From: Chondrosia reniformis
Taxonomy: Eukaryota; Porifera; Demospongiae; Chondrillida; Chondrillidae
Direction: 5' to 3'
DNA length: 64,000 bases
Assembly (NCBI GenBank): GCA_947172415.1
Contig: OX359202.1
Coordinates: forward strand, 5,318,899 to 5,382,898
This document shows, in pieces, positions 20,797-64,000 of the stretch; positions within the stretch are counted from its first letter, which is position 1, and every line of letters begins with the position of its first letter. The translations under genes were made by a program, and so were the position numbers. The notes beneath the pieces were generated by a model. The model did not search any database, had not been told where the DNA came from, and worked only from the letters and a program-made list of their open reading frames with translations.

Positions 20797-21886
20797 TTAG
20801 CTTCCTATCAGTGAAGTGATTAATGCAACCAGCATGCTACAGAAAAGAAATCAGATTTCAAATAAAAGATGGACATATACAGTTAGTATATACATCTTCT
20901 GAAGGATCATCTTTCGACTTTTAGAGCATCTACAGATGCAGTTTTGTTGTCTCTCTTGATTGACAGACATGGCAATCAAATGAGACAACAAAACTGCATC
21001 TGTAGACATTCTACAAGTGGAATGATGATCCTTTCAAAAGATAAGTTTGACGTAGTTGGAAGAAATCCTTATTATATTACAGTATATACATATCAATTAC
21101 AACTTCTTATTCCTATTCATATTATAATGCAAAACAAAACCAAAGATTTAATTATAATAATCAGAATGGAATGTCTCATAGATAGGCCAAACTCACTTGT
21201 ACAGATAAAATAGGAAGGACACCACATAAAATCCACACTTGATAAATCCCTCCTTTGTGTACTTGCTCATCTCGTCCTTATTCATGACAACAGTGGGGTC
21301 GTAGATACCTGGCCCGGACATGGCTGGACGCCTGATGTACCTCAACACGTGGTACACCACCAAAGGCAAATTCAGCACAAAAGAAAACCAGCAGCCGCTC
21401 AACAAGAACACCACGGGGAGCGATAGATGAAGTATATACTCGGGCAATATCAACTAGAAGGAATGCGTAGAATTACCTTAGCATAATAGCTCGTCTCTAC
21501 GTCTTTAAACAAGAAAACTTTTCTAAATATTAAGTAGAAAACAAGTACGCTATAATACTTACATTATTAAGTGTTTTGGCAAAGTCCATCGGATTTCTGT
21601 AGTCATTCTTCAATTCATCTACTACGATGAGCTATATAATACACGTGGACAAGGCATTTCATGTGCATTCGTAATATTGCTTTGAAGGTTGAGATATTTA
21701 GACTACTCGATTCAGCTAGTCTTTTGTCAAAAGTATTATATATCGCATGCATATGTCTTGGAACATACTCCAGGTAAATTGTTAACGGGAAGTTCATAGC
21801 TAACTTACGTGCCACACCATCATAAATAAAAGAATCACAGACACAATGATTGCTGCTAAATACAACCAAAAGTCATAGCTTAACAT
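20797..21886 (-). CDS. CNIH1: Cornichon family AMPA receptor auxiliary/ER cargo receptor (CNIH1/2/3 type)
   Basis: Four exons: 21809-21886, 21563-21631, 21197-21453 and 20797-20836, giving about 147 residues against 144 in human CNIH1. Diagnostic blocks are WHLIVVDELKNDYRNPMD, LILPEYILH, LNLPLVVYHVLRYIRRP and MSGPGIYDPT. Three or four membrane segments are visible. The frame appears to stop at FLFYLYK, but a GTGAGT donor there splices to a short last exon (behind TTCTTTTCTGTAG) reading MLVALITSLIGS, which restores the conserved cornichon tail. A palindromic MITE sits in that last intron. Cornichons load membrane cargo into COPII vesicles at the ER. The gene lies 66 bp downstream of the DCAKD stop, on the same strand. 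Confidence 0.92.
20901..21035. mobile_element. Palindromic MITE in the last cornichon intron
   Basis: Long terminal inverted repeats: GAAGGATCATC and CTACAGATGCAGTTTTGTTG on the left are mirrored by CAACAAAACTGCATCTGTAG and GATGATCCTTTC on the right, around a spacer of about 30 bp. The whole unit could fold into one hairpin. Half-copies of the same family occur at about 43720-43790 and about 49697-49742. Confidence 0.85.
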
Positions 21887-42315: not shown

Positions 42316-43533
42316 ATGTCGGACGTTTTAATTCTGTTTCTTTGTTTAGTTTTATCCATCACCTTGTCGTTTCTGACGATGTATATTGTATCCTTGCAAC
42401 TATTACAGCATATAATTTCTGTACGATCTGTTAGATGTAATATTCTAATGAGTTACGGAGTTCTTCTGAATTTCGTCATTTGACTTGACTTGATTGCTCC
42501 ATAGCTGCTCCTAATAGGAGATATTGAATGTGACTATTCAAATACCAAAACAGGATGCGGCAGATTAAATTATGTATGTTGACTGGCTCAAATGTATGAA
42601 AATGTCATTACATATAATCAGCAGATGAGATGTAAATCATTCAAACATCTCTCATAAAGACCTTGTTGATGAGATGTGTAGTATGTTTCTGTATGTATGT
42701 ATTTCAGTGGGTGCTTCCTGAGATGGTACTATGTGTGATACTGTCTTTACTGCTGGTCTTCACATATCACTGGATATTGTTCCTCTTCACCTTACCAACG
42801 GCTGCCTATGTTGCATACAAGTGAGTTACTCAGCTAACAAATGGGTACACTTCTCACCCTTAAGTACTCTTGACGGTATAGAGACACGCATATAATTTAT
42901 GTATATACGTACATACGTATGCAGGGTTTCTTTCAGGGGAGGGGTAATTTGCCCCCCTTGAAAAAATTGTGCCCCCCTTAGATGATTCCACACTATATAT
43001 GTGCCAGAATGAACATTGGTGCACTATGCCCCCTTCTTTTCTATTATCATCGTTTTGCCCTCCCTTGCTAAATACTCTAAAACACTGGTTTGTAAATGTG
43101 AAAATGTGACAGTAAAAACAGGAAATTAAAAAACATTAAAGATATTACTTTTGTATAGCATATAGATACCAAAATGATAGTGCAAATGTTTTTGATATAA
43201 GGACAAGCACATCTATCTTAATTTATACATATATATACATATATGTGTATAAACTTTGCTATCATGTAGATATTTCACTATTCCACCTGGTAATATTGGG
43301 TTATATGATCCGACAATAATAAGGAATAGAGGTATGATAAGCACGTATCAACGGGAGGCCTTTGTTAAAATTGGCTATCATATTATAGCAAGTTTGGTGA
43401 TATTATACAGGTAGGTATGTGTACCTATGTACATATGTGTAGTATTGCATGTGTATACATTATAATACTGATTGAATATGTCTCTATACTTTTACTTCTT
43501 CTCTGTAGTTTTATTGCAGCAATTATATTCTAA
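42316..43533 (+). CDS. CNIH4: Cornichon family protein, CNIH4 type
   Basis: Five exons join in frame: 42316-42387, 42505-42573, 42708-42820, 43270-43410 and 43509-43533. The product is 139 residues, the same length as human CNIH4. Key blocks are MSDVLILFLC, the second-exon GDIECDYSNT, LNYWVLPEM, FLFTLPTAAYVAYKYF and the CNIH4-type PPGNIGLYDPT-II-NRG, then REAFVKIGYHII and a short last exon SFIAAIIF. The IPPGNIGLYDPT block (not MSGPG as in CNIH1-3) assigns it to the CNIH4 branch. Role: ER-to-Golgi cargo receptor, reported for GPCR export in vertebrates. Exons 4-5 are duplicated at 49240-49503. Confidence 0.95.
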
Positions 43534-43674
43534 TACATCAGTGTTAGGGAGATTTATCATTTGCATCTGTTCCAAATGTAATAATGTTCTATATATATTC
43601 TTTGGATTTTCAACAACACTTGATTCGTGTAGTCATTCTTTAAGAATAACCATATACAATTACATATTCTGTTA

Positions 43675-43795
43675 AATCACTGAAGATGATGATCCTTGGG
43701 GTCAAAATATCTAACAACCAAGAAGAGACAACAAAACTGCATCTTTAGACTAGACGTTCTAAAAGTCGAAAGATGATCCTTTCAATAGATATATA
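43675..43795 (+). mobile_element. Partial MITE of the GATGCAGTTTTGTTG family
   Basis: GAGACAACAAAACTGCATCT and AAAGATGATCCTTTC are the right arm of the palindromic element at 20901-21035. A shortened copy is at 49660-49742 in the duplicate. Confidence 0.75.
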
Positions 43796-44141
43796 AACTG
43801 AGGGAGTTAATTGTGCTAAAGCCTCTGCACAAAGGCTATGATGAAGTGAATAATTAATCATCGGAAGACATTACTTGCATAGTTTGGAGGGGCTATATAT
43901 ATACAGCCCCCCGCTTCCTATGTACACCAGGGCAATATATTTAATCCTGCATGCATGATCATGAATCATTTATACACATTGCATGCATGGAAGTCTGCAT
44001 GAGTTGCATGCATAAATATACGTATATCTTATTACCGAGCGGTATAAAGCGAGGTTAATTGTTTCCGTCGCTTAGGGGAGTCGGATCGAGGTTGCCCACG
44101 CACATAATTGCTTAAAGGTGTGGCAAAGAAAGTTTTCCCGT

Positions 44142-44491
44142 TTATTTAGGGCCATATCTAAATTTTGTGTCAAGTGTAGCTAAAGTTACAAACGAGCTAG
44201 AAAACCATCTTACTCTACAGCCTAAAGGGCCAACAGTGAGGCATCGAACGACGGCTGACATTTCAATGTAGACAACTTACTCGATGCGTAAAAGTGGCTT
44301 GAATATTTTCCTTGGTCAAGCGCCCCGAGACCGAGGTTGGGCCTTAGGATAACGTCCATCGTCTCAAAATTACAACAAGAACGAATTTAAACTTTCCTGT
44401 GGAAAACATTTTTCGATTCACTTACAGGAAAAGCGGGGACTACTAATTTCTCTTCGGGACACTCAAAACGAACAGCCATATTGACTTCCAT
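44142..44491 (-). CDS. Possible three-exon mini-gene or gene fragment, copy 1 only
   Basis: Three short open segments join in frame through consensus splice sites: 44426-44491 (MEVNMAVRFECPEEKL..., donor GTAAGT), 44281-44362 (MDVILRPNLGLGALDQGKYS, donor GTAAGT) and 44142-44212, ending with TAA. Introns would be 63 and 68 bp and the product 72 residues. A pair of good donors with matching phases is more than expected by chance in 350 bp, but the acceptors are only moderate and I recognise no family. It could be the 5' end of a gene captured or inserted here. The segment is missing from the paralogous spacer near 49925-50000. Confidence 0.4.
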
Positions 44492-44704
44492 ATTTTTAAT
44501 TTAACGATATATCATGTTACATTTCAAAATGGATGGCAGAGAGGTCTGAACTGCGTTCACGCTAGTTATATATAGAAATCAGTATTACAGTGTACATGTA
44601 GGATGCAAATTATATAAAGGTCTTTAAGTCACTAGCCTTAACATTAACATAAACACTATCCATTGCAGCTGATCCAGCCATTTCATCACATGCATATGCA
44701 TCTA

Positions 44705-47700
44705 TCATTCCCTATTTATTTCTTCTCTTTCAAGTTGTGCAGGCTGCTCAAACGGTTGCACATGCAGCTCCTCATAACTTCCTATACATGCCTTCATTCT
44801 AATGTAAATCTTCTTTACAATATAGTTATAGCTCACATAGCAGATAAGTATAAAAGCCGGTAACAAGATTAATGCAATATAGAAGTACAAGAAGACGTTG
44901 TCGGTGTGAACACTTGCGATAAACTGCAACTTAGAAAAAATCAAAATACCTTTCAAAGCATTAATGAGGACAAGAAGTAAAAGGTTAAGCGTTTCAATTT
45001 GATTATGTCTTGGTTCCTCAAAGGGATGAACCATGCAGTGGAGACCTAAAATTATAGACAAAAAGAATTGAAGGAAAGCCATTCTCTGGATAGAAGGAAA
45101 AAGTGCAAATATTGCCCATGCAATGGTACGATAGAGAAGATAAAAAGCTGAAAAGAAGTAACGATTATCTTTGTATCCTTTGTATAGTGAATCAAGTAAA
45201 GGTCGCCGTTGACATCCGATGTAACATTTACCCACCATTGGAAACTTCTTTGCTCCCATGGGTAAGAGAGAGTGATAGAGGAGAAACAATGGCAGCATTC
45301 CTGAGACAACAATGAGCAATAATGCCACAATAAAATATACATCATAGCTATTCCATGAGACATTCCCTTGACCAGAGGCTACATACATGTTTCCATCAAT
45401 ACCAGAAATTGTTAAAGAAGTAATTAAGGATCCATTAGATACCTGAATGGATCCCTTTGATAGCAATTTAAATGAAACCTCAGTAATCTTTGCATATGAC
45501 AGAATTACCAGTGTAGCAAAGCCATCTGCCAATCGACCATTACTGGCATATTTTCTGCTCAAATTTCTCACCTTATTCCTGCATTGTGCCCAAATAATAT
45601 TCAGAACTGAACAGCAACGTGGAAATTCACTTTGTGCAACAGCTCCCTTTGCCATCAGCATTAACACAATCACTACTAAAATCTTGTTTCCTTCTAACAG
45701 CACCGTTGTCAGTGGGGTGGTGTACCATAACATGCACACGTAGGTCTTTATAACAGCAAAAAACTTGAAGTGCCACACATCATAGATTGTGCCAAGTGGT
45801 GGATATTTCAAAACTTTATAATCAGTCTCGTACATCAGGATAGTTGGAAGAATACTGCTAAAGAAGACAAGCGAGTGCATACCACCCTGAGTGATGCTCA
45901 GGCCTAGAAACAGGATCAAACTGCAAAAGAGAACTAGCACTCCATTTTCTAGTACAAAGTACATTACTCCACCAGCTATATTCTGAGTCTCATTGTTGGA
46001 GATAGTACAGCGAGTACACTCGACCTGTCCCATTGACACAAGCTGAGGCATGTACCCCTCTTCGCACTGTCCACATAGCAAACCTCTTCGCCCTGGGACA
46101 CAGTTTGTGGTCACTGATCCTTCAAGTAAGGGCAGGTAGGTCATTGTAGTATTGCAGTAACCATCGGGACATGAACCAATTGCAAAATATTTTGTAGATT
46201 TATTGCCCGTCATCTCAATACAATGACCAGCCCAGTAATATGCATCTACAGTAATAGCACTGTCTGAACAAGATTCCAATCCAGTCAAAGGAGGATCACT
46301 ACCTCTAGTGTCTGGAACATCTCCACAAACACAGGAGGAATCCCGAGGAACATACCCATCAGGACAGGTGAGGACTTCATACCTAATGTCGGATATTTTA
46401 AATGTACTGTACATTGTTGAAAATGAGATGTCATACAATTCCTTTGTAGAGGTAGTAGTGGAATTTGATTTGAACTGGATAGTGCCATCAGTGTGTGTAA
46501 TCCACTCTGCCAGAGAGATGTCTGGATCCACTGAATCCTGTATCTGTGCTACCAGGGCAACATCTGATTGACGGCCTAGTTCATCTTTACTTGTCACAGG
46601 AACCTCAATGATTTTCCCAGGAAAGGCAAAAAGAGTTGAAATATTAGCGTAAATAATACCATCAGTTGCAATACTGTTGTTCTTACTCGAAAAGCTAAAC
46701 ACGTCTGACCAGCTGCTAAAGACTTGGTGGACAGCGTCACTGACATTCAGTGTTTGTCCCACATTCACATAAGGATAGATGCATGGAAGGAGAGAGGTGG
46801 AGTAGATGTCATTACCATAATGCTTGGCTCTATTATTGACAAAACTAACTCTAAACCCCCAATCTCTTGGATTAGTATAATAATTCTCTGGTCTAATGAA
46901 ACAACTCGCATAATACACTGCAAAGGCTTTTCCTACGTATTCTGCATATATTGCTCCTCCTCTTATTTTAGCAGTATTATTTTCAAAATGAACATGTGCA
47001 CCTTCCAGCATCTTCAAATAGGCATAGCCGCTTAATGAGATGGCTCCACCAAAGTCTGCCTCATTTTCCATAAAAGTTACAGTTGCATTCCTATTTACAG
47101 TGATACTTGATGCAATAGCTACAAGGGCAGAGCGGTTGTTATGTAAAAACTGTGAACTTCCTGTAAACGAGACTGGAATGTGATCAACGTATAGAGCCCC
47201 AAATCCCTGTTGATTACTAAAGGTTCCAATAAGACCCATTATATTTTTCTGAAATGTTCCATTTTCAAATTCAACAGTAGATAGAACTCCAATATCAGAA
47301 CCTTGCCACAGATGAAGATTAACAGCAAAGCCAAACATACCATAATTTTTCTCCCACATACAGTTTCTAAAAATCATCTTATTAGTGGAAACAGGGCTTA
47401 TCTCTTTGGTAGTGTAAAAGGATGCCCCACCTCCATTCATACATATGTTGTTAGTAAAGTTACAACTGATCACTTCAATTAAGTTGTTCTGAATAGAGTT
47501 CTCTCCAATGATCACAAACCCAAGTCGAGCCCCGCCTCCGGCTAAACCACTATTTTCATGTCCTGTCTCTTGATAGAAACAGGAATTTAAGTAAAACCAA
47601 CTGTAAGATAAGTAAACTGAATTATTGTGAGTGTCATCATGAAACTCAACAAACACTCCGCCTCCCCATTGTGCACTATTATCATAAAATGTGCAATTTT

Positions 47701-48556
47701 CAATAGATATGTCAATATTATTAGCATTTCGCTTAAAGAATATGGACAAACCACCTCCTCTTGAGAAGGCAACATGATCCACTTGGTGTGGGACTATGAA
47801 AGTAGTCTTGCTCTGATTCACCATCACAGCAATGTTGTTTTTGAAGTGACTATGACGAATAAAGTAGTTAGTAAAGCTATTGACAGGAGCTGTACAATTT
47901 TCACTTGTACTTTCAATATCTTCACAGTAGGTGAATTCAATGTATAATCCCCCACCTCCTGGATGATCATTCCTACTGTCTGGGTTGAGGTAGTTATAGG
48001 AAAAAGTGCAATCTTGAACTAACACATGACTACCATTCACATTGTACATTGTAACTCCAACAGCACGATTGTCATTCATCATTACATTTAAGAGGTAAAG
48101 GTTTTCAATCTTCTCAAAATACAAGGCTGACCAGAATTTGAATGTAGCATTGTGTGTGATTTCCTCCACATGGCTGGTACTGTTGCGCAATGTAGCACAA
48201 CCAGTAAATGTGATATTTCTGATTGTAACATTGTTACCCGTAATGCCCAAACCTGCTTCCTTTTGACATGTAACAACTGTTGCATTGTTGCCTTGACCTG
48301 TGATAATAACTTGGCTATACACCAAGTTTAGTCCTCCGTAGGTTGAAGGTTCCCTCTCCAGTGTAAAGTGTCCACTACTGATATTAAGACATACGGATTG
48401 AGTGGATGTCTTCAGTACCTCATTGAGGGGTTTACTGGTTGTGTTGTAGTTGACTACACTGGCTGCAGAAGAGCAGTCAGGCACTGGAATGTCTTGGCTG
48501 GCAGACAGGTGGACTGCACTTGTGAAGATAAATAGTAGTAGCAGTGTGGACATCAT
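44705..48556 (-). CDS. Beta-helix ectodomain, multi-pass membrane protein, copy 1
   Basis: Intronless frame of 1283 codons. Signal peptide about 1-20. Residues about 55-600 are a right-handed beta-helix of the polymorphic-membrane-protein type, with FxxN-type turns followed by GG[AGLV] coils: GGGGLYIEF (200), SRGGGLSIFF (266), QWGGGVFVEF (297), NGGGASFYT (375), DFGGAISLSG (501), RGGAIYAEY (532). Many N-glycosylation sequons. A Cys-rich segment (731-850; CVPGRRGLLCGQCEEGY) resembles ephrin-receptor/EGF-like juxtamembrane modules. About ten hydrophobic segments follow (864-889, 892-908, 928-946, 957-974, 1013-1030, 1072-1097, 1133-1155, 1158-1176, 1187-1207, 1220-1245), then an acidic cytoplasmic tail. 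An acceptor-like CTCTCTACAG 17 bases before the ATG suggests a 5'UTR intron. Function unknown; a surface receptor or channel-like protein is inferred. Confidence 0.88.
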   Translation of the reverse strand: MMSTLLLLFIFTSAVHLSASQDIPVPDCSSAASVVNYNTTSKPLNEVLKTSTQSVCLNISSGHFTLEREPSTYGGLNLVYSQVIITGQGNNATVVTCQKEAGLGITGNNVTIRNITFTGCATLRNSTSHVEEITHNATFKFWSALYFEKIENLYLLNVMMNDNRAVGVTMYNVNGSHVLVQDCTFSYNYLNPDSRNDHPGGGGLYIEFTYCEDIESTSENCTAPVNSFTNYFIRHSHFKNNIAVMVNQSKTTFIVPHQVDHVAFSRGGGLSIFFKRNANNIDISIENCTFYDNSAQWGGGVFVEFHDDTHNNSVYLSYSWFYLNSCFYQETGHENSGLAGGGARLGFVIIGENSIQNNLIEVISCNFTNNICMNGGGASFYTTKEISPVSTNKMIFRNCMWEKNYGMFGFAVNLHLWQGSDIGVLSTVEFENGTFQKNIMGLIGTFSNQQGFGALYVDHIPVSFTGSSQFLHNNRSALVAIASSITVNRNATVTFMENEADFGGAISLSGYAYLKMLEGAHVHFENNTAKIRGGAIYAEYVGKAFAVYYASCFIRPENYYTNPRDWGFRVSFVNNRAKHYGNDIYSTSLLPCIYPYVNVGQTLNVSDAVHQVFSSWSDVFSFSSKNNSIATDGIIYANISTLFAFPGKIIEVPVTSKDELGRQSDVALVAQIQDSVDPDISLAEWITHTDGTIQFKSNSTTTSTKELYDISFSTMYSTFKISDIRYEVLTCPDGYVPRDSSCVCGDVPDTRGSDPPLTGLESCSDSAITVDAYYWAGHCIEMTGNKSTKYFAIGSCPDGYCNTTMTYLPLLEGSVTTNCVPGRRGLLCGQCEEGYMPQLVSMGQVECTRCTISNNETQNIAGGVMYFVLENGVLVLFCSLILFLGLSITQGGMHSLVFFSSILPTILMYETDYKVLKYPPLGTIYDVWHFKFFAVIKTYVCMLWYTTPLTTVLLEGNKILVVIVLMLMAKGAVAQSEFPRCCSVLNIIWAQCRNKVRNLSRKYASNGRLADGFATLVILSYAKITEVSFKLLSKGSIQVSNGSLITSLTISGIDGNMYVASGQGNVSWNSYDVYFIVALLLIVVSGMLPLFLLYHSLLPMGAKKFPMVGKCYIGCQRRPLLDSLYKGYKDNRYFFSAFYLLYRTIAWAIFALFPSIQRMAFLQFFLSIILGLHCMVHPFEEPRHNQIETLNLLLLVLINALKGILIFSKLQFIASVHTDNVFLYFYIALILLPAFILICYVSYNYIVKKIYIRMKACIGSYEELHVQPFEQPAQLEREEINRE

Positions 48557-49239
48557 GGTTGCCTCACTCCTGTAGAGAGGAACAACAGATAAAACACATG
48601 GCTAACTATAGCTATATAACTTATGTAGCTGCACATATATATTGATTTGTGTATGAGGTTAAAGTTGTGATATATTAATTGTAATTCAAATTCACTATCT
48701 AACAAGTCTAGCCCATAGTCTCGCGTAGGCAGACTGCATGCTTCCCCCCTGAAAGCGGTCTGGCTACGCGAGACTACTACTTCTTCGTACTCCGGTATTT
48801 ATTGGGCTTCGCTCGAGCACATTTGATAAAGTCATGTGACATGCCGCGTACGCATACAGGCAAAATGTAATATCATTATTCCGATCATTAAAGATTTATA
48901 ACTGCTTATAATTTAGAAACTATCAAGGAAATGATTTTATGAGTTCAAAGAACTCCTACAACTGACAGCCAAATAATAAACATTAGACATTACCATTACT
49001 TACGTTGTAACTCCTAGCTACGTAAGTGACCATTTTGTTAAAATGGCGCATAACAGGTAGATATAGATGAAGATGAAAGCGATTTGGAGTTCTCTAATTG
49101 TGAGGGTAAGAAATAGTATATAGATATCAAAATGATAGTGCAAATGTTTTTGATATAAGGACAAGCATATCTATCTTAATTTTGTAATTTATACATATGT
49201 ATACGTATAATTATGTGTATAAACTTTGCTATCATGTAG
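48557..49239. other. Spacer between duplicated units
   Basis: Holds the likely 5'UTR of copy 1, a small hairpin at 48717-48774, and about 180 bp of sequence (48936-49116) not shared with the other junction. No supported gene. Confidence 0.6.
48717..48774. repeat. AGTCTCGCG hairpin element
   Basis: AGTCTCGCGTAGGCAGACTG faces an imperfect inverted copy (CGGTCTGGCTACGCGAGACT) across a short loop. Also present in the second unit at 54171-54228. Confidence 0.8.
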
Positions 49240-49503
49240 ATATTTCACTATTCCACCTGGTAATATTGGGTTATATGATCCGACAATAATAAGGAATAGA
49301 GGTATGATAAGCACGTATCAACGGGAGGCCTTTGTTAAAATTGGCTATCATATTATAGCAAGTTTGGTGATATTATACAGGTAGGTATGTGTACCTATGT
49401 ACATATGTGTAGTATTGCATGTGTATACATTATAATACTGATTGAATATGTCTCTATACTATTACTTCTTCTCTGTAGTTTTATTGCGTCAATTATATTC
49501 TAA
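49240..49503 (+). pseudogene. CNIH4 3' fragment (exons 4 and 5 only)
   Basis: Exon 4 (49240-49380) is identical in sequence to the parent exon and keeps its splice sites. Exon 5 (49479-49503) differs so that SFIAAIIF becomes SFIASIIF. Exons 1-3 and the promoter are absent, so it is a duplicated remnant rather than a working gene, unless transcribed from elsewhere. Confidence 0.9.
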
Positions 49504-50154
49504 TACATCAGTGTTAGGGAGATTAATCGTTTGCATCTGTTCCAACTGTAATAATGTTCTATATATAATATTCTTTAGATTTCCAACAACACTTGATTCG
49601 TGTAGTCATTAATTCTTTAAGAATAACCATATACAATTACATATTCTGTTAAATCACTCAAGATGATCCTTGGGGTCAAAATATCTAAACCAAGAAGAGA
49701 CAACAAAACTGCATCTTTAGATGTTCTAAAAGTCAAAAGATGAGAATAATTAATCATCGGAAGACATTACTTGCATAGTTTGGAGGGGCTACATATACAG
49801 CCCCCCGCTTCCTAGCTACATACGCCAGTACAATATATTAAATCCTGCAGCTGCATGCATGATCATGAATCACTATATACATTGCATGCATGGAAGTCTG
49901 CATGAGTTGCATGATCTTATATATATATAGCCAGTGGATTTACATGATATGTATATATAGAAACGCATGCATGACATCAGAATATAAATATTAATAGAAA
50001 TCAGTATTACAGTACTAGTGTAGGATGCAAATTATATATATATATATATAAGCTTAAGTACAAATTAAAGGTCTTTAAGTCACTATAGCTTTAATATTAA
50101 CATAAACACTATCCATTGTAGCTGATTCAGCCATTTCATCACATGCATATGCAT

Positions 50155-53100
50155 CTATCGTTCCCCATTTATTTCTTCTCTTTCAAGCTGTGCAGACTGC
50201 TCTAACGGTTGCACATGCAGCTCCTCATAATTTCCTATACATGCCTTCATTCTAATGTAAATATTCTTTACAATATAGTTATAGCTCACATAGCAGATAA
50301 GTATAAAAGCCGGTAACAAGATTAATGCAATATAGAAGTACAAGAAGACGTTGACGTTGTCGGTGTGAACACTTGCGATAAACTGCAACTTAGAAAAAAT
50401 CAAAATACCTTTCAAAACATTAATGAGGACAAGAAGTAAAAGGTTAAGCGTTTCAATTTGATTATGTCTTGGTTCCTCAAAGGGATGAACCATGCAGTGG
50501 AGACCTAAAATTATAGACAAAAAGAACTGAAGGAAAGCCATTCTCTGGATAGAAGGAAAAAATGCAAATATTGCCCATGCAATGGTACGATAGAGAAGAT
50601 AAAGAGCTGAAAAGAAGTAACGATTATCTTTGTATCCTTTGTATAGTGAATCAAGTAAAGGTCGCCGTTGACATCCGATGTAACATTTGCCCACCATTGG
50701 AAACTTCTTTGCTCCCATGGGTAAGAGAGAGTGATAGAGGAGAAACAATGGCAGCATTCCTGAGACAACAATGAGCAATAATGCCACAATAAAATATACA
50801 TCATAGCTATTCCATGAGACATTCCCTTGACCAGAGGCTACATACATGTTTCCATCAATACCAGAAATTGTTAAAGAGGTAATTGAGGATCCATTAGATA
50901 CCTGAATGGATCCCTTTGATAGCAATTTAAATGAAACCTCAGTAATCTTTGCATATGACAGAATTACCAGTGTGGCAAAGCCATCTGCCAATCGACCATT
51001 ACTGGCATATTTTCTGTTCAAATTTCTCACCTTATTTCTGCATTTTGCCCAAATATTATTCAGAACTGAATAGCAACGTGGAAATTCACTTTGTGCAACA
51101 GCTCCCTTTGCCATCAGCATTAACACAATCACTACTAAAATCTTGTTTCCTTCTAACAGCACCGTTGTCAGTGGGGTGGTGTACCATAACATGCACACAT
51201 AGGTCTTTATAACAGCAAAAAACTTGAAGTGCCACACATCATAGATTGTGCCAAGTGGTGGATATTTCAAAACTTTATAATCAGTCTCGTACATCAGGAT
51301 AGTTGGAAGAATACTGCTATAGAAGACAAGCGAGTGCATACCACCCTGAGTGATGCTCAGGCCTAGAAACAGGATCAAACTGCAAAAGAGAACTAGCACT
51401 CCATTTTCTAGTACAAAGTACATTACTCCACCAGCTATATTCTGAGTCTCATTGTTGGAGATAGTACAGCGAGTACACTCGACCTGTCCCATTGACACAA
51501 GCTGAGGCATGTACCCCTCTTCGCACTGTCCACATAGCAAACCTCTTCGCCCTGGGACACAGTTTGTGGTCACTGATCCTTCTAGTAAGGGCAGGTAGGT
51601 CATTGTAGTATTGCAGTAACCATCGGGACATGAACCAATTGCAAAATATTTTGTAGATTTATTGCCCGTCATCTCAATATGATGACCAGCCCAATAATAT
51701 GCATCTACAGTAATAGCACTGTCTGAACAAGATTCCAATCCAGTCAAAGGAGGATCACTACCTCTAGTGTCTGGAACATCTCCACAAACACAGGAGGAAT
51801 CCCGAGGAACATATCCATCAGGACAGGTGAGTACTTCATATCTAATGTCGGATTTTTTAAATGTACTGTACATTGTTGAAAATGAGATATGTAATTCCTT
51901 TGTAGAGGTAGTAGTGGAATTTGATTTGAACTGAATAGTGCCATCAGTGTGTGTGATCCACTCTGCCAGAGAGATGTCTGGATCCACTGAATCCTGTATC
52001 TGTGCTACCAGGGCAACATCTGATTGACGGCCTAGTTCATCTCTACTTGTCACAGGAACCTCGATAATTTTCCCAGGAAAGGCAGAAAGAGTTGAATCAT
52101 TATAATTAGTGTAAATAATGCCATCAGTTGCAATACTGTTGTTTTTACTAGAAAAGTTAAACACGTGTGACCAGCTGCTAAAGACTTGGTGGACAGCGTC
52201 ACTGACATTCAGTGTTTGTCCCACATTCACATAAGGATAGATACATGGAAGGAGAGAGGTGGAGTAGATGTCATTACCATAATGCTTGGCTCTATTATTG
52301 ACAAAACTAACTCTAAAACCCCAATCTCTTGGATTAGTATAATAATTCTCTGGTCTAATGAAACAACTCGCATAATACACTGCAAAGGCCTTTCCTACGT
52401 ATTCTGCATATATTGCTCCACCTCTTATTTTAGCAGTATTATTTTCAAAATGAACACATGCACCTTCCAGCATCTTCAAATAGGCATAGCCGCTTAACAA
52501 GATGGCTCCACCAAAGTCTGCCTCATTTTCCATAAATGTTACAGTTGCATTCCTATTTACAGTGATACTTGATGCAATAGCTACAAGAGCAGAGCGGTTG
52601 TTATGTAAAAACCATGAACTTCCTGTAAGTGAGACTGGAATGTGATCAACGTATAGAGCCCCAAATCCCTGTTGATTACTAAAGGTTCCAATAAGACCCA
52701 TTATATTTTCCTGGAATGTTCCATTTTCAAATTCAACAGTAGATAGAACTCCAATATCAGAACCTTGCCACAGATGAAGATTAACAGCAGAGCCAAACAT
52801 ACCATAATTTTTCTCCCACATACAGTTTCTAAAAATCATCTTATTAGTGGAAACAGGGCTTATCTCTTTTGTAGTGTAAAAGGATGCCCCGCCTCCATTC
52901 ATACATATATTGTTAGTAAAGTTACAACTGATCACTTCAATTAAGTTGTTCTGAATAGAGTTCTCTCCAATGATCACAAACCCAAGTCGAGCCCCGCCTC
53001 CGGCTAAACCACTATTTTCGTGCTCTCTCTCTTGATAGAAACAGAAATTCAAGTAAAACCAACTGTAAGATAAGTAAACTGAATTATTGTGAGTGTCATC

Positions 53101-54015
53101 ATGAAACTCAACAAACACTCCGCCTCCCCATTGTGCACTATTATCATAAAATGTGCAATTTTCAATAAATATGTTAATATTATTAGCATTTCGCTTAAAG
53201 AATATGGACAAACCACCTCCTCTTGAGAAGGCAACATGATCCACTTGGTGTGGGACTATGAAAGTAGTCTTGTTATGATTCACCATCACAGCAGTGTTGC
53301 TTCTGAAGTCACTATGACGAATAAAGTAGTTTGTAAAGCTATTGACAGGAGCTGTACAATTTTCACTTGTACTTTCAATATCTTCACAGTAGGTGAATTC
53401 AATGTATAATCCCCCACCTCCTGGATGATCATTCCTGTTTACTGAGTTAAGGTAGTTATAAGAAAGAGTGCAACCTTGAACTAACACACGGCTACCAATC
53501 ACATTGTACATTGTAACTCCAACAGCACGATTGTCATTTATGGTTACATTTAAGAGGTAAAGGTTTTCAATCTTCTCAAAATACAAGGCTGACCAGAATT
53601 TGAATGTAGCATTGTGTGTGATCTGCTCCACATGGCTGGTACTGTTGCACAATGTAGCACAACCAGTAAATGTGATATTTCTGATTGTAACATTGTTCCC
53701 CGTAATGCCCAAACCTGCTTCCTTCTCACACGTAACAACTGTTGCATTGCTGCCTTGACCTGTGATAATAACTTGGCTATACACCAAGTTTAGTCCTCCG
53801 TAGGTTGAAGGTTCCCTCTCCAGTGTAAAGTGTCCACTACTGATATTAAGACATACGGATTGATTGGATGTCTTCAGTGCCTCATTGAGGGGTTTACTGG
53901 TTGTGTTATAGTTGACTACACTGGCTGCAGAAGAGCAGTCAGGCACTGGAATGTCTTGGCCGGCAGACAGGTGGACTGCACTTGTGAAGATAAATAGTAG
54001 TAGCAGTGTTGACAT
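50155..54015 (-). CDS. Beta-helix ectodomain, multi-pass membrane protein, copy 2
   Basis: Intronless, 1286 codons, about 95-96% identical to the neighbour at 44705-48556 with the same layout: signal peptide, GGA/FxxN beta-helix, Cys-rich juxtamembrane part, about ten membrane segments and an acidic tail. By eye about 40 substitutions fall in the first 850 residues and about 14 in the last 430. Clusters occur at about 165-250 (CTLSYNYLNSVNRNDHP; DFRSNTAVMVNHNK) and in short indels (NYNDSTLSAF; NVNVFLYF). It lacks the first Met of the MMST pair. The reading frame is fully open, so both copies look functional. The CTCTCTACAG acceptor-like site before the start is conserved. Confidence 0.88.
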   Translation of the reverse strand: MSTLLLLFIFTSAVHLSAGQDIPVPDCSSAASVVNYNTTSKPLNEALKTSNQSVCLNISSGHFTLEREPSTYGGLNLVYSQVIITGQGSNATVVTCEKEAGLGITGNNVTIRNITFTGCATLCNSTSHVEQITHNATFKFWSALYFEKIENLYLLNVTINDNRAVGVTMYNVIGSRVLVQGCTLSYNYLNSVNRNDHPGGGGLYIEFTYCEDIESTSENCTAPVNSFTNYFIRHSDFRSNTAVMVNHNKTTFIVPHQVDHVAFSRGGGLSIFFKRNANNINIFIENCTFYDNSAQWGGGVFVEFHDDTHNNSVYLSYSWFYLNFCFYQEREHENSGLAGGGARLGFVIIGENSIQNNLIEVISCNFTNNICMNGGGASFYTTKEISPVSTNKMIFRNCMWEKNYGMFGSAVNLHLWQGSDIGVLSTVEFENGTFQENIMGLIGTFSNQQGFGALYVDHIPVSLTGSSWFLHNNRSALVAIASSITVNRNATVTFMENEADFGGAILLSGYAYLKMLEGACVHFENNTAKIRGGAIYAEYVGKAFAVYYASCFIRPENYYTNPRDWGFRVSFVNNRAKHYGNDIYSTSLLPCIYPYVNVGQTLNVSDAVHQVFSSWSHVFNFSSKNNSIATDGIIYTNYNDSTLSAFPGKIIEVPVTSRDELGRQSDVALVAQIQDSVDPDISLAEWITHTDGTIQFKSNSTTTSTKELHISFSTMYSTFKKSDIRYEVLTCPDGYVPRDSSCVCGDVPDTRGSDPPLTGLESCSDSAITVDAYYWAGHHIEMTGNKSTKYFAIGSCPDGYCNTTMTYLPLLEGSVTTNCVPGRRGLLCGQCEEGYMPQLVSMGQVECTRCTISNNETQNIAGGVMYFVLENGVLVLFCSLILFLGLSITQGGMHSLVFYSSILPTILMYETDYKVLKYPPLGTIYDVWHFKFFAVIKTYVCMLWYTTPLTTVLLEGNKILVVIVLMLMAKGAVAQSEFPRCYSVLNNIWAKCRNKVRNLNRKYASNGRLADGFATLVILSYAKITEVSFKLLSKGSIQVSNGSSITSLTISGIDGNMYVASGQGNVSWNSYDVYFIVALLLIVVSGMLPLFLLYHSLLPMGAKKFPMVGKCYIGCQRRPLLDSLYKGYKDNRYFFSALYLLYRTIAWAIFAFFPSIQRMAFLQFFLSIILGLHCMVHPFEEPRHNQIETLNLLLLVLINVLKGILIFSKLQFIASVHTDNVNVFLYFYIALILLPAFILICYVSYNYIVKNIYIRMKACIGNYEELHVQPLEQSAQLEREEINGER

Positions 54016-54170
54016 TATGTTTGCCTCACTCCTGTAGAGAGGAACAACAGATAAAACACATGGCTAACTATAGCTATAAAACTTATGTAGCTGCTATTAT
54101 ATTGATTTGTGTATGAGGTTGAAGTTGTGGTATATTAATTGTAATTCACTATTTAACAAGTCTAGCCCAT

Positions 54171-54228
54171 AATCTCGCGCGTAGGCAGACTGCGTCCCCT
54201 CTGAAAGCGGTCTGGCTACGCGAGACTA
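54171..54228. repeat. AGTCTCGCG-type hairpin, second copy
   Basis: Same inverted repeat as 48717-48774, with small differences (TCTCGCGCGTAGGCAGACTG on the left). Confidence 0.75.
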
Positions 54229-54350
54229 TCTACTATCCACACCTGAACGCATATAGGCAAAATGTAATATCATTATTCCGATCATTAAAGATTTATAACA
54301 GCTTATAATTTAGAAACTATATATGTTTACAAAACTCGATCAAGGAAAGC

Positions 54351-55880: not shown

Positions 55881-58800
55881 TACCTGTATAATGGAAAGCT
55901 ATGAAGCCAATACTTGGTATCCCGCATTCACAGACATCTATAAAGCATGTCCAATGAGTTTTTGAAATTTTGAAGTAAGTCAATATTTGCCCTATATATA
56001 TTATATCTCTCACCATAAATTAAGTTTGTATACCAGAATTTAATGTACATTTAGGGCTGTAACTCTGTAAAGATATGAAGCCAATACTTTGTGTGAGCAT
56101 TCACAGACATCTATAAAGCATGCCCAATGAGTTTTTGAAATTTTGAAGTAAGTCAATATTTGCCCTATCTCTCGCCATACATTAAGTTGGTATACCAAAA
56201 TTTAATGTACATTTAGGGCTGTAACTCTGTCAAATGGAAAGATATTAAGCTATCTCTTTGTGTAAGCATTCACAGACATCTATAGAACATGTCCAATGGG
56301 TTTTTGAAATTTTGATGAAACTTAAAATTTGCCCTATCTCTCACCATACATTAACTTTGTATACCAGAATTTAATGTACATTGAGGGCTGTCACTCTATC
56401 AAATGGAGAGATATTAAGATATCTCTTTGTGTAAGCATTCACAGACATCTATAGAACATGTCCAATGGGTTTTTGAAATTTTGATGAAAGTTAAAATTTG
56501 CCCTATCTCTCACCATACATTAACTTTGTATACCAGAATTAAATGTACATTGAGGGCTGTCACTCTATCAAATGGAGAGATATTAAACTAAATCTTTGTG
56601 TAGGTATTCACAGACATCTATAGAACATGTCCAATGGGTTTTTGAAATTTTGATGAAACTTATATAAAATTTGCCCTATCTCTCACAATATATTAACTTA
56701 GTATACCAGAATTTAATATACATTGAGGGCTGTCACTCCATCAAATGGAGAGATATTAAGTTAAATCTTTGTGTAGGCATTCACAGACATCTGTAGAACA
56801 TGTCCAATGGGTGTTTGAAATTTTGATGAAACTTATATAAAATTTGCTCTATCTCTCACAATACATTAACTTTGTATACCAGAATTTAATGTACATTGAG
56901 GGCTGTCACTCTATCAAATGGAGAGATATTAAGCTATCTCTTTGTGTAAGCATTCACAGACATCTATAGAACATGTCCAATGAGTTTTTGAAATTTTGAT
57001 GAAACTTAAAATTTGCCCTATCTCTCACTGTACATTAACATTTTATACCAGAATTTAATGTACATTGAGGGCTGTCACTCTATCAAATGGAGAGATATTA
57101 AGCTATCTCTTTGTGTGAGCATTCACAGACATCTATAAAGCATGCCCAATGAGTTTTTGAAATTTTGAAGTAAGTCAATATTTGCCCTATCTCTCACCAT
57201 ACATTAAGTTGGTATACCAGAATTTAATGTACATTTAGGGCTGTAACTCTGTCAAATGGAAAGATATTCAGCCAATACTTGGTGTGAGCATTCACAGACA
57301 TCTATAAAGCATGCCCAATGAGTTTTTGAAATTTTGAAGTAAGTCAATATTTGCCCTATCTCTCACCATACATTAAGTTGGTATACCAAAATTTAATGTA
57401 CATTTAGGGCTGTAACTCTATCAAATGGAGAGATATTAAGCTATCTCTTTGTGTGAGCATTCACAGACATCTATAAAGCATGCCCAATGAGTTTTTGAAA
57501 TTTTGAAGTAAGTCAATATTTGCCCTATCTCTCACCATACATTAAGTTGGTATACCAGAATTTAATGTACATTTAGGGCTGTAACTCTGTCAAATGGAAA
57601 GATATGAAGCCAATACTTGGTGTGAGCATTCACAGACATCTATAAAGCATGCACAATGAGTTTTTGAAATTTTGAAGTAAGTCAATATTTGCCCTATCTC
57701 TCGCCATACATTAAGTTGGTATACCAAAATTTAATGTACATTGAGGGCTGTAACTCTGTCAAATGGAAAGATATTAAGCTATCTCTTTGTGTAAGCATTC
57801 ACAGACATCTATAGAACATGTCCAATGGGTTTTTGAAATTTTGATGAAACTTATATAAAATTTGCTCTATCTCTCACCATACATTAACTTTGTATACCAG
57901 AATTTAATGTACATTGAGGGCTGTCACTCTATCAAATGGAGAGATATTAAACTAAATCTTTGTGTAGGTATTCACAGACATCTATAGAACATGTCCAATG
58001 GGTTTTTGAAATTTTGATGAAACTTATATAAAATTTGCTCTATCTCTCACCATACATTAACTTTGTATACCAGAATTTAATATACATTGAGGGCTGTCAC
58101 TCCATCAAATGGAGTGATATTAAGCTAAATCTTTGTGTAGGCATTCACAGACATCTATAAAGCATGCCCAATGTGTTTTTGAAATTTTGAAGTAAGTCAA
58201 TATTTGCCCTATCTCTCACCATACTTTAAGTTGGTATACCAGAATTTAATGTACATTTAGGGTTGTCACTCTATCAAATGGAGAGATATATATTAAGCTA
58301 AATCTTTGTGTAGGCATTCACAGACATCTATAGAACATGTCCAATGGGTGTTTGAAATTTTGATGAAACTTAAAATTTGCCCTATCTCTCACCATACATT
58401 AACTTAGTATACCAGAATTTAATGTACATTTAGGGCTGTAACTCTGTCAAATAGAAAGATATGAAGCCAATACTTGGTGTGAGCATTCATAGACATCTAT
58501 AAAGCATGCCCAATGAATTTTTGAAATTTTGAAGTAAGTCAATATTAATATTTGCCCTATATCTCACCATTCATTAAGTTGGTATACCAAAATTTAATGT
58601 ACATTTAGGGCTGTAACTATATCAAATGGAGAGATATGAAGCTAAATCTTTGTGTAAACATTCACAGACATCTAGAGAACATGTCCAATGGGTTTTTGAA
58701 ATTTTGATGAAACTTATATAAAATTTGCTCTATCTCTCACCATACATTAACTTTGTAAACCAGAATTTAATATACATTGAGGGCTGTCATTCTATCAAAT

Positions 58801-61800
58801 GGAGAGATATGAAGCTAAATCTTTGTGTAGGCATTCACAGACATCTATAGAACATGTCCAATGGGTGTTTGAAATTTTGATGAAAGTTAAAATTTGCCCT
58901 ATCTATCACCATACATTAACTTTGTATACCAGAATTTAATATACATTGCGGGCTGTCACTCCATCAAATGGAGAGATATTAAGCTATCTCTTTGTGTAAG
59001 CATTCACAGACATCTATAGAACATGTCCAATGGGTTTTTGAAATTTTGATGAAACTTAAAATTTGCCCTATCTCTCACCATACATTAACTTTGTATACCA
59101 GAATTTAATATACATTGAGGGCTGTCACTCTATCAAATGGATGGATATTAAGCTAAATCTTTGTGTAAGCATTCACAGACATCTATAGAACATGTCCAAT
59201 GGGTTTTTGAAATTTTTACGAAACTTAAAATTTGCCCTATCTCTCACCATACATTAACTTTGTATACCAGAATTTAATGTACATTTAGGGCTGTCACTCT
59301 ATCAAATGGATGGATATTAAGCTAAATCTTTGTGTAAGCATTCACAGACATCTATAGAACATGTCCAATGGGTTTTTGAAATTTTTACGAAACTTAAAAT
59401 TTGCCCTATCTCTCACCATACATTAACTTTGTATACCAGAATTTAATGTACATTTAGGGCTGTCACTCTATCAAATGGATGGATATTAAGCTAAATCTTT
59501 GTGTAAGCATTCACAGACATCTATAGAACATGTCCAATGGGTTTTTGAAATTTTGATGAAAGTTAAAATTTGCCCTATCTCTCACCATACATTAAGTTGG
59601 TATACCAGAATTTAATGTACATTGAGGGCTGTCACTCTATCAAATGGATGGATATTAAGCTAAATCTTTGTGTAAGCATTCACAGACATCTATAGAACAT
59701 GTCCAATGGGTTTTTGAAATTTTGATGAAAGTTAAAATTTGCCCTATCTCTCGCCATACATTAAGTTGGTATACCAAAATTTAATGTACATTGAGGGCTG
59801 TAACTCTGTCAAATGGAAAGATATTAAGCTATCTCTTTGTGTAAGCATTCACAGACATCTATAGAACATGTCCAATGGGTTTTTGAAATTTTGATGAAAC
59901 TTATATAAAATTTGCTCTATCTCTCACCATACATTAACTTTGTATACCAGAATTTAATGTACATTGAGGGCTGTCACTCTATCAAATGGAGAGATATTAA
60001 ACTAAATCTTTGTGTAGGTATTCACAGACATCTCTAGAACATGTCCAATGGGTTTTTGAAATTTTGATGAAACTTATATAAAATTTGCTCTATCTCTCAC
60101 CATACATTAACTTTGTATACCAGAATTTAATATACATTGAGGGCTGTCACTCCATCAAATGGAGTGATATTAAGCTAAATCTTTGTGTAGGCATTCACAG
60201 ACATCTATAAAGCATGCCCAATGTGTTTTTGAAATTTTGAAGTAAGTCAATATTTGCCCTATCTCTCACCATACTTTAAGTTGGTATACCAGAATTTAAT
60301 GTACATTTAGGGTTGTCACTCTATCAAATGGAGAGATATATATTAAGCTAAATCTTTGTGTAGGCATTCACAGACATCTATAGAACATGTCCAATGGGTG
60401 TTTGAAATTTTGATGAAACTTAAAATTTGCTCTATCTCTCACCATACATTAACTTTGTATACCAGAATTTAATATACATTGAGGGCTGTCACTCCATCAA
60501 ATGGAGTGATATTAAGCTAAATCTTTGTGTAAGCATTCACAGACATCTATAAAGCATGCCCAATGTGTTTTTGAAATTTTGAAGTAAGTCAATATTTGCC
60601 CTATCTCTCACCATACTTTAAGTTGGTATACCAGAATTTAATGTACATTTAGGGTTGTCACTCTATCAAATGGAGAGATATATATTAAGCTAAATCTTTG
60701 TGTAAGCATTCACAGACATCTATATATAGAACATGTCCAATGGGTTTTTGAAATTTTGATGAAAGTTAAAATTTGCCCTATCTCTCACCATACATTAAGT
60801 TGGTATACCAGAATTTAATGTACATTGAGGGCTGTCACTCTATCAAATTGATTGATATTAAGCTAAATCTTTGTGTAAGCATTCACAGACATCTATAGAA
60901 CATGTCCAATGGGTTTTTGAAATTTTGATGAAAGTTAAAATTTGCCCTATCAAATTGATTGATATTAAGCTAAATCCCATCCATACATTAAGTTGGTATA
61001 CCAGAATTTAATGTACATTTAGGGCTGTAACTCTGTCAAATGGAAAGATATGAAGCCAATACTTGGTGTGAGCATTCACCGACATCTATAAAGCATGCAC
61101 AATGAGTTTTTGAAATTTTGAAGTAAGTCAATATTTGCCCTATCTCTCGCCATACATTAAGTTGGTATACCAAAATTTAATGTACATTGAGGGCTGTAAC
61201 TCTGTCAAATGGAAAGATATTAAGCTATCTCTTTGTGTAAGCATTCACAGACATCTATAGAACATGTCCAATGGGTTTTTGAAATTTTGATGAAACTTAT
61301 ATAAAATTTGCTCTATCTCTCACCATACATTAACTTTGTATACCAGAATTTAATGTACATTGAGGGCTGTCACTCTATCAAATGGAGAGATATTAAACTA
61401 AATCTTTGTGTAGGTATTCACAGACATCTATAGAACATGTCCAATGGGTTTTTGAAATTTTGATGAAAGTTAAAATTTGCCCTATCTCTCACCATACATT
61501 AAGTTGGTATACCAGAATTTAATGTACATTGAGGGCTGTCACTCTATCAAATGGATGGATATTAAGCTAAATCTTTGTGTAAGCATTCACAGACATCTAT
61601 AGAACATGTCCAATGGGTTTTTGAAATTTTGATGAAAGTTAAAATTTGCCCTATCTCTCACCATACATTAAGTTGGTATACCAGAATTTAATGTACATTT
61701 AGGGCTGTAACTCTGTCAAATGGAAAGATATGAAGCCAATACTTGGTGTGAGCATTCACCGACATCTATAAAGCATGCACAATGAGTTTTTGAAATTTTG

Positions 61801-64000
61801 AAGTAAGTCAATATTTGCCCTATCTCTCGCCATACATTAAGTTGGTATACCAAAATTTAATGTACATTGAGGGCTGTAACTCTGTCAAATGGAAAGATAT
61901 TAAGCTATCTCTTTGTGTAAGCATTCACAGACATCTATAGAACATGTCCAATGGGTTTTTGAAATTTTGATGAAAGTTAAAATTTGCCCTATCTCTCACC
62001 ATACATTAAGTTGGTATACCAGAATTTAATGTACATTTAGGGCTGTAACTCTGTCAAATGGAAAGATATGAAGCCAATACTTGGTGTGAGCATTCACCGA
62101 CATCTATAAAGCATGCCTAATGAGTTTTTGAAATTTTGAAGTAAATCAATATTTGCCCTATCTCTCACCATACATTAAGTTGGTATACCAGAATTTAATG
62201 TACATTTAGGGCTGTAACTCTGTCAAATGGAAAGATATGAAGCTACTACTTGGTGGGAGTATTCATAGACATCTATAAAGCATGCCCAATAAATTTTTGA
62301 AATTTTGAAGTAAGTCAATATTAATATTTGCCCTATATCTCACCATTCATTAAGTTGGTATACCAGAATTTAATGTACATTTAGGGCTGTAACTCTATCA
62401 AATGGAGAGATATGAAGCTAAATCTTTGTGTAAACATTCACAGACATCTAGAGAACATGTCCAATGGGTGTTTGAAATTTTGATGAAACTTATATAAAAT
62501 TTGCTCTATCTCTCACCATACATTAACTTTGTATACCAGAATTTAATGTACATTGAGGGCTGTCACTCTATCAAATGGAGAGATATGAAGCTAAATCTTT
62601 GTGTAAACATTCACAGACATCTATAGAACATGTCCAATGGGTTTTTGAAATTTTGATGAAAGTTAAAATTTGCCCTATCTCTCACCATACATTAAGTTGG
62701 TATACCAGAATTTAATGTACATTTAGGGCTGTAACTCTGTCAAATGGAAAGATATGAAGCCAATACTTGGTGTGAGCATTCACCGACATCTATAAAGCAT
62801 GCCCAATGAGTTTTTGAAATTTTGAAGTAAATCAATATTTGCCCTATCTCTCACCATACATTAAGTTGGTATACCAGAATTTAATGTACATTTAGGGCTG
62901 TAACTCTATCAAATGGAGAGATATGAAGCTAAATCTTTGTGTAAACATTCACAGACATCTAGAAAACATGTCCAATGGGTTTTTGAAATTTTGATGAAAC
63001 TTATATAAAATTTGCTCTATCTCTCACCATACATTAACTTTGTATACCAGAATTTAATGTACATTGAGGGCTGTCACTCTATCAAATGGAGAGATATGAA
63101 GCTAAATCTTTGTGTAAACATTCACAGACATCTATAGAACATGTCCAATGGGTTTTTGAAATTTTGATGAAACTTATATATAATTTGCCCTATCTCTCAC
63201 AATACATTAACTTTGTATACCAGAATTTAATATACATTGGGGCTAGGGTTGTCACTCTATCAAATGGAGAGATATGAAGCTATCTCTTTATATAAGCATT
63301 CACAGACATCTATAGAACATGTCCAATGGGTGTTTGAAATTTTGATGAAGCTTAAAATTTGCCCTATCTCTCACAATACATTAACTTTGTATACCAGAAT
63401 TTAATGTACATTGAGGGCTGTCACTCTATCAAATGGAGAGATATTAAACTAAATCTTTGTGTAGGTATTCACAGACATCTATAGAACATGTCCAATGGGT
63501 TTTTGAAATTTTGATGAAACTTATATAAAATTTGCCCTATCTCTCACAATACATTAACTTAGTATACCAGAATTTAATATACATTGAGGGTTGTCACTCT
63601 ATCAAATGGAGAGATATGAAGCTATCTCTTTGTGTAAGCATTCACAGACATCTATAGAACATGTCCAATGGGTTTTTGAAATTTTGACGAAACTTAAAAT
63701 TTGCCCTATCTCTCACCATACATTAACTTTGTATACCAGAATTTAATATACATTGAGGGCTGTCACTCCATCAAATGGAGAGATATTAAGCTATCTCTTT
63801 GTGTAAGCATTCACAGACATCTATAGAACATGTCCAATGGGTTTTTGAAATTTTGACGAAACTTAAAATTTGCCCTATCTCTCACCATACATTAACTTTG
63901 TATACCAGAATTTAATGTACATTGAGGGCTGTCACTCTATCAAATGGATGGATATTAAGCTAAATCTTTGTGTAAGCATTCACAGACATCTATAGAACAT
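55881..64000. repeat. Satellite array, about 169-173 bp monomers, higher-order structure
   Basis: About 48 head-to-tail monomers run to the window edge. Markers repeat in every unit: GCCCTATCTCTCACCATACA, GTATACCAGAATTTAATGTA, GGGCTGT[CA]ACTCT, ATTCACAGACATCTATA and TTTTTGAAATTTTGA. Spacings such as 59234, 59403, 59572 give 169 bp; a four-base ATAT insertion gives about 173. Two main subfamilies alternate: one with AGAACATGTCCAATGGG and TTTGTATACC, one with AAAGCATGCCCAATGAG and TTGGTATACC plus GAAGTAAGTCAATATT. The first unit (about 55890) is degenerate, as expected at an array edge. No coding content. Confidence 0.97.

What the first reader, a model, noticed from the sequence alone, without database searches (positions are those of the whole stretch)
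44705..54015. Twin intronless receptors: beta-helix ectodomain fused to a ten-pass membrane module
Two adjacent genes of about 1285 codons combine a bacterial-Pmp-like GGA/FxxN beta-helix, a Cys-rich juxtamembrane motif (GRRGLLCGQCEEGY) and about ten membrane segments with a conserved HPFEEPRHNQIETLNLLLL region. I cannot match the membrane part to a named channel or GPCR family. Intronless genes among intron-rich neighbours suggest retroposition or a distinct origin. This is my leading candidate for an undescribed surface recognition or channel system.
Basis: partly seen in the sequence, partly recalled or inferred. Interest (0 to 1): 0.75.

Follow-up and report, generated by a model that had tools for sequence, protein, structure and literature searches.

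The report
Expanded family of nine-pass surface proteins
Two nearly identical neighbouring genes in an animal genome (probably a sponge) encode large surface-type proteins with a bacterial-adhesin-like outer part and a nine-pass membrane part to which the searches made here gave no family name, and they belong to a family of about sixty related places in that genome.

Summary
Two minus-strand ORFs (1283 and 1286 aa) carry a probable signal peptide, GGA/FxxN beta-helix repeats, a Cys-rich membrane-proximal head and a multi-pass membrane module. Three points of the reading change. (1) The module most likely has nine passes, not ten: ten puts 25 of 29 loop K/R outside; two nine-pass models put 25 of 29 or 22 of 30 inside. 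(2) The twins arose by tandem DNA duplication, not retroposition: the unit includes flanks and 3' exons of a neighbouring cornichon gene. (3) They are not alone: the 117 Mb assembly holds about 60 related places with different ectodomains on one kind of membrane module. The Cys head resembles Pfam DUF7630 below cut-off, and a membrane-only HMM finds 10 of 12 loci chosen by DUF7630 alone. The module has no Pfam match above cut-off in 20 members scanned, and no PDB match by sequence. One probable eukaryotic contaminant contig (L069) may carry the same module; that wider homology is suggestive only. Structure prediction was never available. Most likely role: a surface sensing or recognition receptor family; transduction unknown, channel activity untested.

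The parts
44705..48556 (-). Gene A, CDS of 1283 aa, uninterrupted
50155..54015 (-). Gene B, CDS of 1286 aa, 1225 of 1281 aligned residues identical to A
46757..48319 (-). A: beta-helix region with GGA/FxxN repeats (about residues 80-600; limits approximate, no structure model)
45992..46369 (-). A: Cys-rich head and juxtamembrane motif (residues 730-855), DUF7630-like at 818-850, below cut-off
44837..45961 (-). A: membrane module, probably nine passes (residues 866-1240)
44984..45025 (-). A: conserved loop motif PFEEPRHNQIETLN (P1178 in 33 of 33, F1179 and N1185 in 28 of 33 family rows)
51451..51828 (-). B: Cys-rich head and juxtamembrane motif
50290..51420 (-). B: membrane module
   Evidence: alignment to A
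48570..48589 (-). 3' splice-site-like sequence before A's ATG (possible 5'-UTR intron)
   Evidence: inference
54032..54051 (-). the same sequence before B's ATG
   Evidence: inference
43155..48781 (.). Duplicated segment, copy with gene A and 3' exons of an apparently fuller cornichon gene
49113..54234 (.). Duplicated segment, copy with gene B and a cornichon fragment of 3' exons only

Best explanation
A and B are recent tandem duplicates in a family of about 60 places that encode surface-type receptors. Shown: one related multi-pass module carried behind different extracellular parts. Inferred from hydropathy and charge: N-out, nine passes, C-in. In A/B a Pmp-like beta-helix stands on a Cys-rich head. 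Inferred mechanism: the beta-helix makes an elongated binding or adhesion surface for microbes, neighbouring cells or matrix; binding or pull is passed through the Cys-rich collar to the membrane module, whose cytoplasmic PF-x5-N loop contacts the transducing partner or gate. I consider a sensory receptor, possibly itself a cation channel, most likely. A/B-type copies multiply by tandem DNA duplication.
For: Anatomy. Nine passes: loop K/R 25 in and 4 out, or 22 in and 8 out, against 4 in and 25 out for ten; both NxS/T sites of loop 1028-1072 fall outside. Family: A has 34 matches in its own genome, five of them full length at 95-100% including A and B; the union of four searches is 60 clusters on 11 of 15 contigs. 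Different extracellular parts on one module. Independent link: an HMM of the membrane part alone (24 rows, Cys part cut off) matches 10 of 12 loci that were chosen through the 45-residue DUF7630 model, E 5e-15 to 4e-6 for a set of 24 frames (12 of 13 DUF7630 places were fetched). DNA duplication. dN 0.021, dS 0.058 with both frames intact fits purifying selection.
Against: No expression, localisation, ligand or current was or could be tested. No structure model: structure prediction was busy at all 25 attempts. No pore, selectivity or G-protein motif was identified. The second helix is uncertain (892-910 or 932-950), and the family average shows only eight clear segments. One NxS/T site (998) falls inside in the nine-pass models. 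Two of the 12 DUF7630 loci (L161, L162) did not match the HMM.
Confidence: 0.5

Rival explanations
1. The membrane module is a TRP/Flc-like cation channel (Pfam PF06011 type: signal peptide, luminal domain, about nine passes; recalled) gated by ligand or force on the beta-helix.
For: The nine-pass N-out layout resembles what I recall of fungal Flc proteins.
Against: PF06011 did not appear in hmmscan of A, B, L069 or 18 paralogs and gave nothing in the own genome; that last test is weak because none of the 14 control genomes rang either.
Confidence: 0.25
2. It is a 7TM-GPCR-like receptor with extra helices, signalling through G proteins.
For: Large ectodomain with a Cys-rich neck; Ephrin_rec-like domains are reported in choanoflagellate Glutamate receptors (PMC12716839, passages seen).
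Against: No 7tm Pfam match in 20 members scanned; nine passes likelier; no GPCR motif noticed, though none was searched for by a dedicated tool.
Confidence: 0.12
3. Pure adhesion or allorecognition protein: the beta-helix binds and the membrane module is only an anchor.
For: Tandem copies, Pmp-type repeats (chlamydial Pmps are described as having a role in adhesion: PMC11166332, search listing with start of abstract only), many NxS/T sites (A: 23 against a shuffle mean of 12.8, reached by 2 of 1000).
Against: A membrane module kept across highly diverged paralogs with near-invariant loop residues, and paralogs with little extracellular part, argue that the membrane part does something itself.
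Confidence: 0.2
4. Retroposed or laterally acquired bacterial-like genes.
For: Uninterrupted CDS here and in many relatives; Pmp repeats.
Against: The pair is a segmental duplication with flanks and exons of another gene; the family lies on 11 contigs; a splice-site-like sequence stands before the ATG in 5 of 5 tandem copies. An ancient retroposition or acquisition of the ancestor is not excluded.
Confidence: 0.06

Closest known systems
Pfam PF24633 DUF7630 proteins
   Same: Cys-rich juxtamembrane domain in front of a related multi-pass module: 13 places above cut-off in this genome, in frames of 286-1344 aa; 10 of 12 fetched loci match the membrane-only HMM
   Different: A and B score below the DUF7630 cut-off (17.5 bits whole, 18.9 excised, against 27); the long frames of that subfamily printed have 0-3 GG[AGS] against 10 in A; function unknown
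Chlamydial Pmp autotransporters (PF02415, TIGR01376)
   Same: GGA/FxxN repeats above curated cut-off
   Different: C-terminal part is hydrophobic helices with no autotransporter match; eukaryotic gene context
L069 protein (JAIYCK010000376.1, filed under a Flavobacteriales pond MAG; I take it for a eukaryotic contaminant, untested)
   Same: Cys motif, nine hydrophobic segments after it, PFxxxxxNxxETL loop
   Different: Extracellular part is TIG plus Ephrin_rec_like; similarity of the membrane part marginal
Fungal Flc/TRP (PF06011)
   Same: About nine passes, N-out (recalled)
   Different: No profile match found

Membership tests
Chlam_PMP / POMP repeat | GGA[ILV] and FxxN repeat above curated score | tested here: met
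   26.4 and 21.8 bits against 20.6; 31.9 and 33.1 against 15; shuffles
Chlamydial Pmp autotransporter | C-terminal autotransporter beta-barrel | tested here: not met
   no autotransporter match at E up to 1 in Pfam or NCBIfam; C-terminal part is hydrophobic helices
DUF7630 (PF24633) | score over the curated cut-off of 27 bits | tested here: not met
   17.5 bits whole protein, 18.9 bits excised
DUF7630-type multi-pass proteins | homologous multi-pass module behind the Cys domain | tested here: met
   membrane-only HMM of A, B and 22 paralogs matches 10 of 12 DUF7630-selected loci, E 5e-15 to 4e-6 for 24 frames; L161 and L162 missed
TRP/Flc channels (PF06011) | profile match over cut-off | tested here: inconclusive
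   no match; controls did not ring either
TRP/Flc channels (PF06011) | channel fold and ion conduction | not testable with these tools
   Structure prediction busy at every attempt (last)
GPCR | 7tm profile match | tested here: not met
   none in 20 members scanned
Wider eukaryotic Cys-head/nine-pass family (L069) | significant similarity over the membrane module | tested here: inconclusive
   pairwise E 0.002; 43, 26 and 6 of 1000 shuffles (by 10s, by 20s, whole) reach the score, and 2 of 66 other multi-pass ORFs score higher; combined HMM: L069 with its Cys part first of 2327 (E 0.018), membrane part alone third (E 0.093) by whole score and sixth row by domain score; DUF7630-type HMM: membrane part 33rd; L069 against the own genome: nothing

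The most novel reading that the evidence does not exclude
An undescribed nine-pass membrane-protein superfamily, shared by animals and protists, has been expanded in this probable sponge into about 60 surface receptors with swappable extracellular parts (Pmp-like beta-helix, Cys-rich head only, or nearly bare), multiplied by tandem DNA duplication, and serves as an innate recognition or self/non-self repertoire that signals through its own membrane channel.
Probability: 0.2. Interest if true: 0.8.

Novelty: new variant of a known kind. Interest (0 to 1): 0.5.

Why it matters
About sixty related places in a 117 Mb genome is a large investment in one membrane-protein design that has no functional annotation in the libraries searched. 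If it is a sensory or recognition repertoire, it would bear on how an early-branching animal senses microbes and neighbours without vertebrate-type immune receptors, and the membrane module would be a new transduction unit to test directly.

Tried and rejected
Close relatives of A in viral contigs: no pattern match. A1 in genome contigs: 11 pattern matches, none confirmed. L069 in viral contigs: no pattern match; mixed alignments A2 and A3: 51 and 53 pattern matches, none confirmed.

PDB by sequence and by profile: nothing meaningful (the two hits have E 2.4 and 6.9). PF06011: nothing, with uninformative controls.

Retroposition of the pair: rejected. Ten passes: disfavoured. CitMHS, DUF7318, SecE, DUF2834 and similar sub-cut-off Pfam hits on the membrane part: regarded as chance on hydrophobic sequence; not tested further.

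Literature: ten searches listed no paper that I recognised as describing this architecture; the library holds only open-licence PubMed Central papers. One paper was looked into by passages.

Withdrawn: an earlier count said L069 is top of 2327 by domain score; that call showed only the 12 best by whole score. It also says all relatives are single ORFs; several are split (see the full report). The cluster count used all places (34; 13; 49), but only 11 of the 41, those that looked new; by eye the rest lie in clusters already counted.
Full report
Observation. The two ORFs exist as described: A 44705..48556 and B 50155..54015, minus strand, 1283 and 1286 aa, 1225 of 1281 aligned residues identical. 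The ectodomain carries Pmp-type repeats above curated cut-offs and far above composition shuffles. The Cys motif and the HPFEEPRHN motif are in both. The N-terminus looks like a signal peptide by hydropathy; no dedicated predictor was run.

Topology. Ten hydrophobic candidates lie after residue 870, plus a weak one at 1037-1055. Counting K/R in the loops beyond the N-domain, the ten-pass model puts 4 inside and 25 outside; the two nine-pass models put 25 inside and 4 outside, or 22 and 8, and place both NxS/T sites of loop 1028-1072 outside, while one site (998) falls inside. Averaged over 33 family rows eight segments are clear and the second is not. Nine passes, N-out and C-in, is therefore the likeliest model, not a demonstrated one. 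The helix limits used for L069 were chosen by eye.

Origin of the pair. The duplicated DNA covers 44615-48781 against 50066-54234 (96.3%) and further blocks 43155-43776 against 49113-49743 (93%) and 43848-44020 against 49744-49925 (86%). The unit starts within a plus-strand cornichon gene: exons at 42708-42821 and 43271-43411 match Pfam Cornichon positions 45-82 and 87-122, and the copy at 49241-49381 repeats only the latter (E 4e-6 and 1.3e-4, below the curated cut-off for these short exons). So B's side carries a headless cornichon fragment, and B is most simply the daughter copy. dN/dS is about 0.36 (0.0206/0.0579, NG86). A pyrimidine-rich AG 13-16 nt before the ATG is identical in all five tandem copies; of 18 family genes looked at, 8 have such a site with at least 80% pyrimidine within 120 nt (the five, L136, L141 and L164) and 10 do not, with no shuffle control. 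A 5'-UTR intron in A and B is inferred, not shown. FAM161A next door has a 584-codon exon and probably a further C-terminal exon (by eye), so long exons are not unique here.

Family in the genome. The window is G000:C14:5318899-5382898 of a 117.4 Mb, 15-contig assembly. A has 34 matches: five full-length genes within about 57 kb at 95-100% (A and B among them), one copy at 94% over residues 1-992 followed in another frame by a 64% C-terminal piece, one 61% full-length gene, several long relatives at 23-30%, and many shorter genes that match mainly the C-terminal half. Searches with two paralogs and with DUF7630 bring the union to 60 clusters on 11 contigs. By my own count from those tables, 54 of the 60 hold an open frame of at least 480 aa; the count merges some close neighbours and may include fragments, and the tool says its lists are lower bounds. 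Extracellular parts differ: long forms with beta-helix repeats, 570-770 aa forms with a Cys-rich head, and 480-540 aa forms with little outside. Not all are one intact frame: L138, L147, L154 and L163 are split and some C9 copies hold stops.

The membrane module. Twenty members were scanned with Pfam (A and B; seven; four; seven): none had a match over cut-off on the membrane module. Of the family only A and B were scanned with NCBIfam. Over 33 aligned rows P1178 is kept in 33, G891 in 32, R1143 and D1122 in 31, F1179 and N1185 in 28. The HMM still contained the Cys part, so I rebuilt it from the membrane part alone: it matches 10 of the 12 loci that had been fetched only through the 45-residue DUF7630 model, E 5e-15 to 4e-6 for a set of 24 frames, and misses L161 and L162. 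This ties A to the DUF7630 proteins through an independent region. It also matches all 12 loci L167-L178, but these had been chosen by a membrane-part search.

Beyond this genome. A DNA pattern for the Cys motif brought in L069, a 3048-base contig filed under a Flavobacteriales MAG but encoding TIG, Ephrin_rec_like and a nine-segment membrane part; I take it for a eukaryotic contaminant, untested. Against A it gives pairwise E 0.002 in the PF-N region. Against shuffles within 10- or 20-residue windows 43 and 26 of 1000 reach the score, and two of 66 other multi-pass ORFs score higher. The HMM of 24 rows gives its membrane part a collinear domain of 9.8 bits but whole-sequence E 10. With the combined HMM L069 including its Cys part, by which it was found, ranks first of 2327 targets (E 0.018) in a collinear alignment over the whole module; its membrane part alone ranks third (E 0.093), and with the DUF7630-type HMM 33rd. 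Searching the genome with L069 finds nothing. Homology is likely in my judgement but not proven; that such modules are common in algae and other protists is recalled, not tested.

Organism. Exportin-1 in the window scores 93 bits against one group of exportin-1 chains and 57 against another, which I recall as animal and fungal.

Function. No tool result tells function. The commitment is to a surface sensing or recognition receptor family (shown: anatomy, copy number, different extracellular parts; inferred: surface location, ligand binding, transduction). A TRP/Flc-like channel is the leading specific hypothesis for the membrane part, but it has no sequence support and structure prediction was never available.

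Noticed in passing
window 19906-19978 (-): HDV-like ribozyme match (RF02682, 47 bits against gathering 44, E 1.5e-5), possibly part of a retrotransposon (guess).
   Followed up: no
window 56004-64000: Satellite array of a 169-bp unit, about 47 copies, 88% matches, running to the window end; three more tandem copies of the gene lie beyond the window.
   Followed up: partly
window about 48717-48775 and 54172-54232: Inverted repeat AGTCTCGCGTAG...CTACGCGAGACT (slightly altered in the second) upstream of both genes, MITE-like, inside the duplicated unit.
   Followed up: no
window 42318-43534 (+) and 21220-21387 (-): Two different cornichon-like genes in one window; the outer limits of the first are by eye.
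   Followed up: partly
window 7390-8244: Overlapping long ORFs over a repetitive stretch, whose plus-strand frame reads [17 protein letters not shown] repeats; no Pfam match for the minus-strand ORF.
   Followed up: no
genes A and B: Synonymous divergence is lower in the membrane half (dS 0.025) than in the ectodomain half (0.075), which may hint at local gene conversion.
   Followed up: no
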